Source: an uncultured bacterium
Lineage (GTDB): Bacteria; Patescibacteriota; Gracilibacteria; Absconditabacterales; Absconditicoccaceae
Length of the DNA: 64,000 nucleotides
Reading direction: 5' to 3'
NCBI GenBank assembly: GCA_937872535.1
Contig: CALMTC010000004.1
Location: 1 to 64,000 of the forward strand
The translations under genes were made by a program, and so were the position numbers. The stretch's first letter is position 1. Every line of letters starts with the position of its first letter. This document shows, one piece after another, positions 28,650 through 62,662 of the stretch. The notes below the pieces were generated by a model. The model made no database searches, was not told where the DNA came from, and saw nothing but the letters and a program-made list of their open reading frames with translations.

Positions 28650-28850
28650 AAAAAAATCCGCAGTCGGAATACCGATGCGGTAAGACACCTAGTTTGGAAC
28701 AGTGATGAACCAAATGACCCAAGCATCTCATTTTATATGCTCGACCTTCTGTGTAGATGGTCTTAAGCAAGTTTTAAAGAGTAAATAACTCTTAACACTT
28801 GACCCTTTAGTGGTTTTTGTTGGTGAAGCCTACTGTTGAGTTTCTGTGTT
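28650..28850 (-). ncRNA. Free-standing structured RNA, about 200 nt, unassigned
   Basis: Minus-strand transcript bounded by a promoter (TTGTAG at 28884-28879, 16 bases, TATACT at 28862-28857) and a terminator (CCGCATCGG, tatt, CCGACTGCGG, then eight T). Internal stems in RNA sense: CAAGT...AAGAGT/ACTCTT...ACTTG nested near 28780; GACC/GGTC; AGCAT/ATGCT; TTTGG/CCAAA. No ORF on either strand. No match to RNase P, tmRNA or SRP seen. Confidence 0.65.
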
Positions 28851-28889
28851 GTCTATAGTATATGACTTTTTTTGATAACTACAAATCAG

Positions 28890-29199
28890 GAACAACCATT
28901 TTTTTTAAATTTCTTTTAAATTACTGACATTTTCTTGTAATTATTTATGATAAATGTTTTTGTTCTGGTTTTTTCTCAAAATTGATAACTATGAGTTTGC
29001 AAGATGACTTTCCACACTTACTTTTTCACAAAATTATTGTTGTTTTTACATTTTTTCTTGTCACAAAGATCAAAACGATTTCTTCGATTTTTATCTTATC
29101 ATACAAAACCTTTTTTGGAAGCTAGTTTTTACTGATTGTTATCAAAACTTTATCCTGAATCTCTTCTGAAAAAAGTCAATGTAAGTTTTCAACAAACTT
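28890..29199. other. AT-rich intergenic stretch, no gene seen
   Basis: Between the small RNA promoter and the rsmH promoter. One 44-codon + ORF from 28991 has no homology I recognise and no ribosome-binding site. A single TTTCCACAC is the only DnaA-box-like word, too little to call an origin. Confidence 0.5.
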
Positions 29200-41189: not shown

Positions 41190-41600
41190 TAAATCCTCGC
41201 CGGGTGGGCATACTTTTTTGGCATTGCCACAAATCCCGCATAAAATTCTATTACTATTTTTGCGGGGTCGAAAACAATGGAAATCGAAAAGTATGCACAC
41301 TTCGTAAGTAAGGTCGCATTCTTATTTTTTCTTCGTTTCCCTTGAAAAAATAAATGCTCATCTTAAAAAAACTCTAGCCAACGCAAAATCTCGTCTTTAC
41401 TCTCCTCCTTACTCCTTGACTACTCACTATGTTTTTTCTTGGTTCTACCGACTCACCCCGATAGTCATCGAGGGCAGGCCATCAAAGGATCGTCTCGTTC
41501 ATTTTTTCTACAACGAGGTTGGACCTCAGACCCCGCAGTCCTGCGGGGCGTTGGCGAGGATAATCAGTGATTTTTTGTTGCTCAAATTTCTTTTAGAAAA
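41190..41600. repeat. Repeat-rich non-coding block
   Basis: Contains CTCGCCGGGTGGGC (41196-41209, identical at 44648), a variant of the 20.1 kb element (41310-41350), CCCCGATAGTCATCGAGGGC (41457) and CCCCGCAGTCCTGCGGGG, a perfect 18-base palindrome (41532-41549). No convincing ORF on either strand. GC is above average. It appears to be an accumulation of small palindromic elements. Confidence 0.6.
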
Positions 41601-44564: not shown

Positions 44565-44647
44565 TTTTTCGCTCATTTTCTAAAAATAATTTTCTGGTGA
44601 ATGTAATGTGATAGTCAGTTTTTTCCTATTTTAAAAAATTTTTCACC

Positions 44648-44880
44648 CTCGCCGGGTGGGCGTTTCTTTTTTTCTGCCAGGAAAAAAAAGAAACCAAAAA
44701 ACCCCTCTCCACCGCAAAACTCGCAATTATTTTATTGTAATATTTCGATACTGTTTTTTTTACGAACGCCTCAAACCCATCTCGTCAAATACACTCGACG
44801 GGGCCCATTTCGGCTTGTGGTTTTTTCTGTTTTACTCATGCTCTAAGGTAAGCTCAAACAAGGTTGCGGTGGAATGATAT
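44648..44880. repeat. Degenerate repeat block with GTTTCTTTTTTT hairpin
   Basis: CTCGCCGGGTGGGC is identical to 41196. GTTTCTTTTTTT and AAAAAAAAGAAAC then form a hairpin, and AAACCCCTCTCCACCGCAAAACTCG-like text resembles the 41.38 kb copy. No gene is seen from 44565 to 45225 apart from this and two hairpins. Confidence 0.55.
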
Positions 44881-45000
44881 TCAGCTTTAGCGAAGCTGTA
44901 GTTTTTTAGTTTTCCAGATAATTACTTTTTGTAAATCAGCGTTATATTGTGTTTTTTTTGAAAAACGTTTTTTTAGCAATATTTTTGGTTTTGAATTATA

Positions 45001-45034
45001 AAAAAACAAGTGAGACGAGCTCGCTTGTTTTTTA
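45001..45034. terminator. Strong bidirectional hairpin
   Basis: AAAAAACAAGTGAG and CTCGCTTGTTTTTT form a 14-pair stem (one G-T) with a short loop. Confidence 0.75.
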
Positions 45035-45195
45035 TTAGGCTTCACCAACATTTATATTATATATATTTTTTATGATTTGTCAAATAAATGGTGTGCTTTT
45101 TATTTTTGTGAATGTAAAATATATATGTTTTTTGTTTAAAAAATCTATTACTTTATTTATTTTTTAGACATTTATGGTGTCCATTTTTTTTATGA

Positions 45196-49850: not shown

Positions 49851-49922
49851 AGGGCGTTGGTGTAATCGGTAACACAACGGTCTTCGGAACCGTTTTTGTG
49901 GGTTCAAGTCCTGCACGCCCTG
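49851..49922 (+). tRNA. tRNA-Trp with UCG anticodon (reads CGA/CGG)
   Basis: 72 nt, all four arms. Acceptor AGGGCGT pairs with ACGCCCT; D stem GTGT/ACAC; anticodon stem ACGGT/ACCGT with loop CTTCGGA, so the anticodon is UCG (34-36); T arm GTGGG/CCTGC with TTCAAGT; discriminator G73; CCA is not encoded. The A1-U72 pair, G73, and the CGGTCT..AACCG anticodon arm match bacterial tRNA-Trp and not tRNA-Arg. It is the expected decoder of CGA (and by wobble CGG) as Trp, the codon use seen in the surrounding genes. Confidence 0.88.
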
Positions 49923-55955: not shown

Positions 55956-58874
55956 TTAATATTCATAGATGGTAAATGTGAGAGTTCAATTATAAGATCA
56001 TGGATTTTGGTATGCTGGAATGAGGATTTTTATTTGTGGTGTATTTCAATAGATTCATCTTAGATAGTTATTTGGAGCAGTATTTCTCATGATATAGGTA
56101 AATACTCAACTCATTGCTTGAAAGGATGAAAGTCCAGTCGAAATAGTAACTAGAGGATTGGCTGAGCCACTGAGAAGCTGTATGCCTGTGGCTTGTATAA
56201 AAATACTTGAACTGGGAATTGTGCTAAATAATCATGAAAGAGGGGTGGCTGATAATGTCGTATAATAACCACTATTTAATCCTTTTTGATCACTAATACT
56301 GAAAGGAATGGTTGGAGACTGAATAGCTTCCTGTAGTATATTACTTGCTAAAAGTCCAGTAAATTGAAGCCCGGATGCACTATTTATAGTTACTGTTCCA
56401 ATTCGTTCTACTGTTGCTGTGATTTCTCATGTAGAGCCATCAAGATTTAGGTATTCAAATGTAAATGTCCCGTTATTAGTAAAGGTATAGACCCCTGTCG
56501 CATTATTATTTGTAATGATGGTGGTATTTGGTAGTCAAGTGACTGTTGCTTTTACTGATCAGGTCGTGGCTCCGGTGGTACTATAGTTTATAGATGGTCA
56601 TGTTACGATACTGAGGGCTGAAGTGAATACGAATGAACCAGAGTAGCCATAGGCGTTTATTACTTTAAGTGTTACATTGTAGGTTCAGTTGGCGAAAGGA
56701 CCTATTGTTTCGTTTGGTATTGTTCGCGTTCAGTTACTGGAATTTACTGTGCCTGTGTAATTTATTCAACTGATCGTAACTATAACTGAAGATGTTTTTG
56801 GTCATACTGTTCACGATAATGTCGGACTGTCATTATTGGTAGTCAGGGTTTGAAAAGTTCCTGTTAGTGCTGATAATAGTTGTATTCTAGGAACTGGTAA
56901 ATTTATATTGTAAACACGAGTTTCGTCTATTGCTCATGAAAAATATCTTGTTGGGGTGCTGGTACTTTGTCTTCCTATTGAAACGACATTTGCTGCATTA
57001 CTAGAAAATGTGACGAGTGGAGACGCTGTCGCTTCGGAGATGCCGTTTACATAAAGTCTTATATCTGTAGTGCTGTTAAAAACTCATACTATATAATATC
57101 GCTGTCCTGTAACTAGACTTGACGATGAATTTGTAATAGACTCTAATGTATTTCTTAAAATGACACTTGCTTTATTACCATTGAGACCGATTCCTCGATA
57201 TCTATTATTTGCTGATGATCTTGCAAGTCAGGCAATTCGTTGTACTCCAGAAAGACGACTTGGTCTTACTCGGGCTCCAATTGTAAAAGGGAATGCTGTG
57301 ACTATTTGATCATTTCTTTGAAGATATGCATTTGTTCCATTAAAGTTTACTATAGATTCTGCTCACAGAGTAGTGACAGTGTAACCTCCAAATCAAGTTG
57401 CATTATCTCCGTTAGTAGAACTGTCAAAAAAAACTGCACCACTATTACTACTTGTGATATGTCGGATTAATCAGGATGCCATTACTACACTATTTGTGTC
57501 TAGGTAAATTCTATCAGTAGTAAAAGCTGTAGTACCACCGGAATTACTGAATGCAGCATAGACTGTTTTGAGTTCATCTGTTCCTGTAAGTGTCCAGTTG
57601 AAGCTGCTAGAATATCCTGTCCAGTTTGCTGCATCTCTTGCTGCTGGTGTATTTCCAAATTTCATGAGAGTAGCTCCTGTTACATTGTTTTGGAGAGTAA
57701 CATTGAATCCGGTTGCTGTGGTTGCGTCATTATTTATGACAAATGATCCTGTTGAAAGTCAGAATGAAAATATTGTAAAATGTGTTGTGTTGAAAGAAAT
57801 CGTTGTTTCTCCATCTTGTTCTTTTGCTTCGGTAGTGGTTTGGTGTGATCGAGTTTCTCCGTTATCTTCTGAGAAAAAGACATCAATTGTGTTCCCTAGA
57901 AAAATAGAATCGACAGTGCTTGTGATTTGAACTGTTTTTGGGGTCATATCAATTTTATCAATAAAATCGATATTTTCATCTGTTTTTACTTTTATTGTTT
58001 TGAAAATATTATTATTTTCATCTGGGTAAGATGTCGTTTCGATGGTTTCAGGCTTATAAATGATTCACTGATAGGCTTTTCTTTCTCTTGTCAGTGCTTT
58101 TGTACCTGCGTTGATTTTAATTTTTATGGTTTCATCATCTGATACGAGGTCGATACTTTCTGTTATAATTCCTTGGGAGTATTTTGTTCTTATATTTTTC
58201 TTAATTTTATTATTTTCTTTAAAAAAGTTTTTATTCTGACTTTTGAAATTATTTCCAGTACATGGCTCAGTGACTATACAGTCTGTTCATGGAAAATCCA
58301 TTTCATTATAAAAATCAAGAATATTAGTATCTTCTTCAATTTCTTCTCAAGTATTTATTTCTGTTGTTCTGTCTTTTGTTATTAGGGAGATTTCTTTGTT
58401 ATCTGTATCATCAATAAGTGATTCATTATTTTTTCCACTTAATTCTATTGAGTTTCATAGATCTCAACTTCAAAACTCATTTGTGATGATTTCTCTTTCT
58501 TGATTTTCTCAAGTTATTATTGATCAAGTAATTTCTAGTGGACTATTTATTGTCGTATTATTTAAGCTATCTCATGATCCATTTTCCGAGGTAGAAATAT
58601 CGAAAGATGTAACAGTTGGTTGACTATTTTCAGTTTCATAAACTGTGATTGTTTGTGATTTCTCTTCATAAGTGGGAGGTGGAGTGTCTGTTTGTTCATA
58701 AACTGTGATTGTTTGTTCTGGTAAACTTACGGTTTCTGTTGTTTGTGTTATTTCTGCTTCTTGAGCAAATGTACTTTTTGAGCTTATCGATTGTATGATG
58801 ATTTGTGAAAAAATAGCAATAGTGATTGCTACTTTTATAACTGTCCCGTATGATATCTTTTTTATTTTTTCCAT
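55956..58874 (-). CDS. Large LamG/WxL surface adhesin
   Basis: 972 residues. Signal helix (about 12-32), then a repeat QTITVYE twice near 50-75, an acidic low-complexity stretch to about 170, beta domains, a LamG/concanavalin-like module (about 490-650; GFGGYTVTTL, VNFNGTNAYLQRNDQIVTAFPFTIGA), two Ig-like modules (TLKVINAYGYSGSFVFTS) and a C-terminal WxL-like domain ending in PAYQNPGSYNGTLTFTIYEY. Secreted; likely binds carbohydrate or host surface. Confidence 0.7.
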
Positions 58875-59054: not shown

Positions 59055-59082
59055 TTGACAGATTTAAAAAAATATTTATAAT
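59055..59082 (+). promoter_or_regulatory. Consensus promoter of the 59.1-60.0 kb RNA
   Basis: TTGACA (59055-59060), 16 bases, TATAAT (59077-59082): both hexamers match the sigma70 consensus exactly. The predicted start of transcription is about 59089. No ORF begins here. Confidence 0.85.
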
Positions 59083-59088
59083 TATCGT

Positions 59089-60037
59089 GTTGATGAGGGA
59101 TGAATGTTTTCGTTTCTGTATCGGTCATTAAAATGGAGTAGTTCTTTTTCCTAGTAGATGGTTGAGGCTTCATTACTTTTCTGAAGTTTTGCTGAGATTT
59201 GTGTCAGGTTTGTAGGTGATAGTGAAAATGGTTGGTAATTCGACCGTTGGAGGTATGATTAGCAGCCTTATTGTCTCCGCTGATTTGAGATGGTTTTCGG
59301 TTTCAGTCGTCTACTAGGGGGAAGGATATCTCAACTTATTATTGTGCGTGGCTTTTGAGGCTGAAGGTGCTAAGTCTTTGACTTGGTGCTGTCGGAGATT
59401 CGAGCTTTCCATGGACTTGTAGATTTCTGAGGAGAAACGGAACTTTTTCTTCGGTATCTAGCTTTTCTTTGTGATTGGTCTTTATATGAGGCTGATTATA
59501 GAGGGAGTTTCAGGGGAGTATTTCGTAATCTTTTCGATCTTTAGGGAGGAAAATACAATAATTGCGATGTTTGTTTAAAGTAGAAATACTTTTTATCAAT
59601 CTTTGTTATCCTGGCTGATAGCCGTTGTCTTCGTTCTTGACTGCTTTTCTTAATTTTTTCATCATAGAGGTATTATATCTTGATGGTGGTAAAGTCGAGT
59701 GAGTAGGTAAGAAAAAGATGATGAATGAAAAGACTTTTATTGAGAAGTACTGTCTGACTTGTTTTCAGAATCCTATTGGATGATGAGGATAGGGGATTAC
59801 TATACGATTTCGTATCGTGTATTATTTCAGTTTGGTGGGTAGTAAAAATTCTGAGTGCTGACTCTTCGTAGTCTCACTGTGAAACCTGTGTGTTGTCGGT
59901 GAAAGTCGACTTGCTAGGGTGGTGTGAACTTATCGTTTTCATCTTTTTATTATCGGGTCTTGTATGATAGTGGGTAGTGGTGTCTTTTCTCCTTTTTTTG
60001 TTCTTACATTATGCCAGATTTTATCTGGTGTTTTTTT
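59089..60037 (+). ncRNA. Large structured non-coding RNA, about 950 nt, unassigned
   Basis: No ORF over about 60 codons with UGA as sense on the + strand. A perfect promoter precedes and a terminator ends it. GC is well above the window. Hairpins seen: GTGCTAAGTC/GACTTGGTGC with a three-base loop (about 59366-59388), AAAGTA-GAAA-TACTTT (about 59577-59592), GTATTT/AAATAC, CCTAT/ATAGG, ACGAT/ATCGT, GACT/AGTC, and GTCGGT-GAAA-GTCGAC near 59903, a U-G closed GAAA hairpin. GATGAA near the 5' end can pair with TTCATC near the 3' end. Candidate for a new large RNA class. Confidence 0.75.
60011..60037 (+). terminator. Terminator of the large RNA
   Basis: CCAGAT and ATCTGG around a three-base loop, then GTG and seven T. 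Confidence 0.8.
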
Positions 60038-60192
60038 GTGCTGAAAAATTTCTTACTGATTCGTTCCACTTTACCCACTTTTTTATGATGGTTGAGTATG
60101 TTTTACAAAACTCTTGTAGTAAGAACTTATATTCATACATTTAAAAAAAAATTTTTTTCTGGTGAATGATTTATTTTTTTGATTAGTGAGTG

Positions 60193-61255: not shown

Positions 61256-62662
61256 ATGAAACTAAAAATTTATAATACACTTTCTCGTATTAAGGAAGAA
61301 TTTCAGCCACTTGATCCAGAACTAGTGAAGATCTATAGCTGTGGACCGACTGTCTATGGAGATCCTCATATTGGAAACTTGAGAGCTTTTACTTTTGCTG
61401 GTTTGCTTGGAGATACTATCAGGCATGTGCTGGGGCTCAAAGTGAAGCATGTGATGAACATTACTGATGTTGGACATCTGACGGACGATGGAGATCATGG
61501 TGAAGATAAAATGGAAAAATGATCCAGAAAAGAATGATTGACTGCTTGGGAGATTGCTGAGAAGTATGAAAAAAACTTTCATGAGTATTTGACAAAGCTT
61601 GGTATTCACTTTGATGAATTTCCAAAAGCTACAGACTATATCTCTCAGCAGATTCAGATCGTAGAGGAGCTTGAAAAAAATGGTTATACTTATTTGATTC
61701 CAGGAGATGGAATTTATATGGATACCAGTAAGATTGAAGACTATGGAAAGCTGATGGGCGAACACTATAAAAAAAATATAGCTGGGCTCAATGCTGGTGC
61801 AAGAGTCGAGAATGATGGTAAAAAAAATCCTACAGATTTTGCTCTGTGGAAGATTTCTCCTGCTGGTGAAAAAAGACAGATGGAACGAGATTCGCCTCGA
61901 GGAGTCTGATTTCCTGGCTGGCATATAGAGTGTAGTGCTATGTCGAGAGCTACACTTGGAAACTTTTTTGATATTCATACTGGATGATACGACCATATTT
62001 CGGTTCATCATACCAATGAAATTGCTCAGTCGGAGTGTGGTTTTACTGATCATAAAAAATGGGTAAACTATCGAATGCACTGTCAGTTTCTCAATATCAA
62101 AGGTGAAAAAATTTCTAAATCACTTTGAAATACTTTTTCTCTGCCAGAGATCGAAGCTAGGTGATTTAGTGCTCTCGATCTGAGATATTTTTTTATGCAG
62201 GCTCACTACAGAAGTTTTCAAGATTTTACTCGAGAGGGGCTAGAGGCTGCTAAGAGTGCTAGGAAAAATTTATCTAAAAAACTGAAAAATTATTATTCTG
62301 GATTTTCTCTTGGTGACTGAAATTTTGCTGGTGACTTAGCTGAAGAAATAGTTTCTCCACTTCTGAATGATCTTGATATGCCTACTGTTTTGGCTGTGGT
62401 TCATACATGGTCGACTCATTTGGATGAAATGAAACTAAAAAATATTTACTTTCTGGAAAAAAATATTCTCAAGCTGGGGATTTTTGATGAAGAAATCGAA
62501 GAAAAAATTGAGATTCCAGAAGAGATTATCTGATTGGCTCAGCAGCGTGTCGAGGCTAAAAAGGCTAAGAATTTCTGACTGGCTGATGAACTGAGGGAGA
62601 GAATTAAGGAGCTTGGCTATGTTGTTGAAGATTTGAAAGAGGGAGGCTTTGAGATAAAGTAA
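61256..62662 (+). CDS. cysS: Cysteinyl-tRNA synthetase
   Basis: 468 residues. Zn ligand C29 in [14 protein letters not shown] at 38-41, [38 protein letters not shown], and KISKS (about 284) in the catalytic core. The consensus W.SPWG is encoded with CGA at 61886 and 61898 (residues 211 and 215), followed by UGG in PGWH. Many UGA Gly. C-terminal anticodon domain is short. Charges tRNA-Cys. Confidence 0.97.

What the first reader, a model, noticed from the sequence alone, without database searches (positions are those of the whole stretch)
59089..60037. Large ORF-free structured transcript of about 950 nt
A consensus sigma70 promoter (TTGACA-16-TATAAT) and a rho-independent terminator frame about 950 nt with no coding frame, higher GC and many hairpins, including a ten-pair stem with a three-base loop and a GAAA-capped stem. 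It matches no RNA I know: too long for RNase P, tmRNA or 6S, and lacking a group II intron ORF. It may be a new class of large ornate RNA.
Basis: partly seen in the sequence, partly recalled or inferred. Interest (0 to 1): 0.9.

Follow-up and report, generated by a model that had tools for sequence, protein, structure and literature searches.

The report
Orphan 950-nt structured RNA, TGA=Gly bacterium
A tiny uncultured bacterium that reads the stop codon TGA as glycine carries a stretch of about 950 bases that looks like a strongly transcribed, intricately folded RNA that makes no protein and matches no known RNA family; its fold is statistically very solid, but no relative of it was found, so its function is unknown from comparison.

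Summary
Between a perfect sigma-70 promoter (59055-59082) and an intrinsic terminator (60011-60037) lie about 945 nt with no coding frame, also under the genome's own code (TGA=Gly). As + strand RNA it folds to -308.6 kcal/mol against -242.6 ± 7.9 for 100 dinucleotide shuffles (z = -8.4), and z = -9 to -10 with local composition kept. The opposite strand shows nothing (z = -0.7). 27% of pairs are G-U and the signal nearly vanishes when G-U is forbidden, so the fold is at RNA level, not DNA palindromes. It has the largest folding-energy excess and strongest strand bias of all 94 non-coding gaps of 350 nt or more in the genome. No Rfam family matches even at E ≤ 5. No reliable relative was found by DNA (58 other genomes, phages, plasmids) or by covariance models of three domains (49 to 353 genomes). 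Covariation, the decisive test, could not be run. A ~450-nt orphan RNA on contig C15 shares promoter, first bases and fold character, not sequence. Most likely an autonomous structural RNA, perhaps GOLLD/ROOL/OLE-like in mode of action, not in membership. In passing: a separate unlisted ~340-510-nt RNA family with strong covariation in a related genus.

The parts
59055..59082 (+). perfect sigma-70-type promoter, TTGACA-16-TATAAT
   Evidence: only 12 perfect sites in 1.2 Mb
59089..60037 (+). predicted non-coding transcript, about 945 nt, start inferred 7 nt after the -10 box (GTTGATGAGG...)
   Evidence: inferred start and stop; fold z=-8.4 sense, -0.7 antisense; -9.1/-10.0 with block shuffles
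59087..59128 (+). 5' hairpin, 18 pairs
   Evidence: mean pair probability 0.90
59144..59324 (+). domain I: 23-pair stem with a side hairpin and a 30-pair inner arm
   Evidence: alone z=-8.0, antisense -2.7
59325..59984 (+). long-range closing helix 59325-59354 with 59955-59984 (27 pairs) around the central and 3' domains
   Evidence: mean pair probability 0.91
   Evidence: z=-5.6
59420..59508 (+). two long adjacent hairpins (59420-59460 and 59461-59508)
   Evidence: z=-2.9 and -5.1
59510..59757 (+). central domain with the long arm 59624-59722; the inner part 59540-59612 is poorly defined
   Evidence: z=-3.5; arm alone -5.2
59758..59828 (+). two hairpins of the 3' half
   Evidence: z=-4.4 and -2.3
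59845..59943 (+). three hairpins near the 3' end, the middle one (59884-59920) with the GAAA-capped tip 59895-59910
   Evidence: z=-2.1: weakest domain
60011..60037 (+). intrinsic terminator, ATGCCAGAT-TTT-ATCTGGTGT then T run

Best explanation
The locus encodes an autonomous, strongly transcribed structural RNA of about 945 nt that works as RNA. Shown by sequence and computation: perfect promoter, terminator, no frame, a + strand fold far beyond chance that relies on G-U pairs. Inferred: it is transcribed as one stable molecule and kept by selection for its fold. Proposed mechanism (inferred, about 0.35 on its own): a scaffold that binds a protein partner or copies of itself, as OLE, ROOL and GOLLD RNAs do. 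The confidence given is for the first part, a functional structural RNA made from this strand.
For: Perfect promoter and terminator at the two ends. z=-8.4 against 100 shuffles, none of which comes near (minimum -263.4, native -308.6), antisense -0.7, 94 of 350 pairs G-U, and forbidding G-U leaves about -1.5 SD. Block shuffles -9.1 and -10.0, and every domain tested alone is below chance. Largest energy excess (-69 kcal/mol) and strongest strand bias among 94 non-coding gaps of the genome. Excess per nt larger than that of this genome's RNase P and tmRNA (-0.070 against -0.038 and -0.021). A sibling RNA (C15:26908-26425, minus) shares a perfect promoter, the start GTTGATGA, T/G-rich sense strand, excess -0.071 per nt and silent antisense.
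Against: No homolog, hence no covariation. A minimum-energy fold of a single sequence can be wrong in detail, and a stable fold alone does not prove function. No expression data. The sibling shows no sequence similarity to it and no match to its domain models.
Confidence: 0.8

Rival explanations
1. It is a member of an existing large RNA family (GOLLD, ROOL, OLE, group II intron, RNase P, tmRNA, rRNA fragment) that has diverged beyond recognition.
For: Size and many-branched fold are like those of ornate RNAs; a GAAA-capped stem near the 3' end faintly recalls group II domain V (by eye).
Against: No Rfam family at E up to 5 for this stretch and none at gathering score in the window besides a tRNA. 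RNase P RNA and tmRNA are found elsewhere in the genome. The domain-V catalytic AGC triad is not at the GAAA stem (by eye), and no reverse transcriptase lies beside it (neighbours).
Confidence: 0.12
2. It is a regulatory RNA: a long leader or an antisense/sponge RNA whose long helices sequester a target, rather than a scaffold.
For: A gene starts on the same strand 150 nt downstream (60190) and a divergent surface-protein gene starts 210 nt upstream (58874).
Against: A terminator separates it from the downstream gene. The downstream gene's homolog in G005 has only an 82-nt gap beside it. No target was searched for by pairing.
Confidence: 0.2
3. It is a decayed protein gene or a foreign remnant, and the fold is an accident of composition.
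For: Two minus-strand frames of 86-89 aa with scores that are slightly positive with the window-trained set.
Against: Their scores are within the noise (3 and -8 with the whole-genome set), no Pfam match, and composition-preserving shuffles, global and local, do not reproduce the fold.
Confidence: 0.05
4. The hairpins are DNA-level inverted repeats (mobile-element remnants).
For: Relatives such as G005 have palindromic intergenic stretches with high z on both strands.
Against: Such repeats fold on both strands; here the antisense is at -0.7 and the signal drops to about -1.5 SD without G-U pairs; the stretch is single-copy in the genome.
Confidence: 0.03

Closest known systems
ROOL and GOLLD RNAs
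   Same: 600-900 nt, many long branched helices, no frame; function unknown, form RNA-only cages (PMC12286853)
   Different: no match to any Rfam model; not in a tRNA island (the only tRNA of the window is at 49851); no phage record carries it
OLE RNA
   Same: large ornate bacterial RNA with an elaborate fold
   Different: no Rfam match; no OLE-associated protein looked for or seen beside it
Group II intron RNA
   Same: size, closing long-range helix, GAAA-capped stem near the 3' end
   Different: no Rfam match, no catalytic triad at that stem, no intron-encoded protein, starts at a promoter and ends at a terminator
C15 orphan RNA of the same genome (G000:C15:26881-26425, minus)
   Same: perfect promoter, start GTTGATGA, T/G-rich, strong sense-only fold (z about -6)
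   Different: half the length, no sequence similarity beyond promoter and start

Membership tests
GOLLD / ROOL / OLE | match to the family's covariance model | tested here: not met
   no Rfam hit at E up to 5
GOLLD / ROOL / OLE | covarying multi-branched secondary structure | not testable with these tools
   no homologs found; single-sequence fold only
GOLLD / ROOL / OLE | homo-oligomeric complex | not testable with these tools
   needs cryo-EM or mass photometry
Group II intron | domain V with catalytic triad | tested here: not met
   no Rfam group II model matches; triad absent at the GAAA stem by inspection
RNase P RNA | match to RNase P model | tested here: not met
   no hit here; the genome's RNase P RNA is at C7:15254-15594
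tmRNA | match to tmRNA model | tested here: not met
   no hit here; tmRNA is on C19
large structured non-coding RNA (broad kind) | own promoter and terminator, no frame, fold beyond chance on one strand | tested here: met
large structured non-coding RNA (broad kind) | discrete transcript | not testable with these tools
   no RNA-seq available

The most novel reading that the evidence does not exclude
A new class of giant ornate RNA, made in this TGA=Gly lineage together with a smaller sibling on C15, both driven by perfect consensus promoters and starting with GUUGAUGA, forming an abundant RNA-only or ribonucleoprotein assembly.
Probability: 0.35. Interest if true: 0.85.

Novelty: new variant of a known kind. 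Interest (0 to 1): 0.62.

Why it matters
Few bacterial RNAs this large and this structured are known besides rRNA, and three of those recently turned out to build RNA-only complexes (PMC12286853). A genome of 1.25 Mb that keeps a 945-nt non-coding gene behind one of its 12 perfect promoters is probably spending on something useful.

Tried and rejected
Hidden protein under TGA=Gly: rejected. Known RNA: rejected at E up to 5. DNA homologs in own genome, 58 others, phages, plasmids, viral contigs: none of significance. Synteny through neighbouring genes: the downstream gene has weak homologs in G005 and G006 without such a gap; the cysS scan of genome contigs returned only distant phyla. Covariance models of three domains: R2 and R3 in 353 genomes, R1 in 49. 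R3's best foreign hit (G312, 20.4 bits) lies almost wholly antisense to an open 231-aa frame and breaks many pairs, so taken as chance. Whole-genome structure scan of G005: high-scoring gaps were palindromic repeats, atypical genes, tRNA/rRNA, a CRISPR array and one RNA of the side family. Shared start GTTGATGAGG with the G025 RNA: at first looked like kinship, but G025's own relatives do not keep it and no sequence similarity follows. The side family's profile finds nothing convincing in this genome. Domain models against sibling RNAs: no convincing match.

Full report
What is there. The window is contig C4 of a 1.25 Mb, 23-contig genome. Genes run open only when TGA is read as glycine: cysS at 61256-62662 has nine such codons, the surface protein at 55956-58874 thirty-one. 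That is the code of Absconditabacteria/Gracilibacteria (NCBI table 25; identity of the organism inferred from this). In the divergent space between the surface-protein gene (minus, starting at 58874) and a small gene at 60190 (plus) sits the reported element.

The frame. A perfect promoter, TTGACA-16-TATAAT, stands at 59055-59082 and a terminator at 60011-60031 with its T run to about 60037. Promoter-like sites as such are as common as in shuffles (7 against 5.7), but perfect ones are rare: 12 in the 1.2 Mb held, six of them with no same-strand gene within about 400 nt. The inferred RNA runs from about 59089 to 60037.

No protein. Under tables 11 and 25 the longest frames are 86-100 aa, scattered over both strands. 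Hexamer coding scores trained on this genome are -14 to +8, where 86-codon pieces of real genes have a median of 29. No Pfam match.

The fold. Sense MFE -308.6 kcal/mol; 100 dinucleotide shuffles -242.6 ± 7.9, best -263.4; z = -8.4. Antisense -131.2 against -126.2, z = -0.7. 350 pairs, 94 of them G-U; with G-U forbidden the value is -149.4 against -133.6 ± 10.2. Shuffling inside 40- or 80-nt blocks, which keeps local composition, gives z -10.0 and -9.1; limiting pairs to 200 nt gives -7.7; domains taken alone give -2 to -8. The tool's first figure, -12.8, rests on 20 shuffles and should not be quoted. Helices with mean pair probability about 0.9 include a 23-pair stem (59144-59166 with 59302-59324), a 30-pair arm (59191-59225 with 59268-59301) and a 27-pair long-range helix (59325-59354 with 59955-59984), each with a few bulges or internal mismatches; the inner central domain (59540-59612) is uncertain.

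How unusual in its genome. Of 94 non-coding gaps of at least 350 nt (1.198 of 1.25 Mb examined), this one has the largest energy excess (-69 kcal/mol) and the strongest strand asymmetry. Known RNAs of the same genome score lower: RNase P z -2.5, tmRNA -1.3; 20 long genic stretches lie between -3.2 and +2.0.

Relatives. None that can be trusted. Rfam: nothing up to E = 5. DNA: nothing beyond short AT-rich chance matches in its own genome or 58 others, phages or plasmids. Covariance models built from its own domains: R2 hit only itself in 49 and 353 genomes; R1 hit itself and one marginal place in its own genome, E 0.3, in 49; R3 gave three weak foreign hits in 353, the best of which is almost wholly antisense to an open frame and breaks pairs. 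Models from a single sequence are weak, so distant homologs can have been missed. The absence of homologs means that covariation, the usual proof, is missing.

A sibling. C15:26908-26425 (minus) has a perfect promoter, the same first bases GTTGATGA at the same spacing, about 450 nt without a gene, a terminator, z = -6.0 sense and -0.2 antisense, and the same T/G-rich make-up. Beyond promoter and start there is no sequence similarity. Over 353 genomes, the promoter-plus-GTTGATGA pattern with a perfect promoter recurs once, in G025.

The G025 lead. G025:C51 has a 512-nt ORF-free RNA there (z = -8.2). Homologs in G034, G065 and G017 give an alignment with 31 of 87 pairs changed on both sides, against 12.3 ± 2.5 in shuffles and 5-8 when slid, and G005 has a likely member (aligned with the others before the search, so its score is not independent). 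Rfam has nothing for it. It is a genuine RNA family, but the GTTGATGA start is not conserved inside it and it shows no relation to the finding. It is reported under things noticed.

Mechanism. Shown: promoter, terminator, lack of a frame, RNA-level fold. Inferred: one stable transcript, maintained for its structure. The most likely action is as a scaffold, alone or with protein, as for OLE, ROOL and GOLLD (PMC12286853); this last step is a guess by likeness of anatomy.

Verdict.

Noticed in passing
L251:6521-7032 (-), L278:2092-2478 (+), L279:2004-2359 (+), L280:2456-2943 (-), G005:C1:28853-29191 (-): An RNA family of about 340-510 nt in a related genus and probably in G005, near dnaX in three of them, with perfect or near-perfect promoter, terminator, A/C-rich linker and core UGGUUACUU...GGUAACC; 31 of 87 pairs covary in four sequences, no Rfam match. 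Looks like a new RNA family worth its own study.
   Followed up: partly
G000:C15:26425-26908 (-), L222:6425-6908: Orphan RNA of about 450 nt with perfect promoter, start GTTGATGA and sense-only fold (z about -6); no homolog in 48 other family genomes.
   Followed up: partly
G000:C7:29606-30105 and G000:C10:24908-25407: Two 98.6% identical 500-nt copies of a unit with perfect promoter, about 430 nt without a gene and a terminator.
   Followed up: partly
G000:C2:55370-56380 (L198): CRISPR array whose repeats end in TCTACTATTGTAGAT on one strand, the mark of Cas12a-type repeats (by eye). No Cas gene was looked for.
   Followed up: no
window 28655-28935 (-): Gene-free stretch ending in a GC-rich terminator hairpin and T run, possibly another small RNA of about 250 nt; no Rfam match.
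   Followed up: no
window 44565-45083 (-): Perfect promoter at 45083 followed by about 500 nt without a same-strand gene, A-rich, shares GTTGGTGAAGCCTA with window 28827.
   Followed up: no
window 41190-41580, G000:C5:14230, C8:54588, C11:202911: Dispersed intergenic repeat of about 260-365 nt, 87-98% identical between copies.
   Followed up: no
G000:C2:25300-25771 (-): Perfect promoter followed by about 400 nt without a reliable gene, possible RNA, z -2.5.
   Followed up: no
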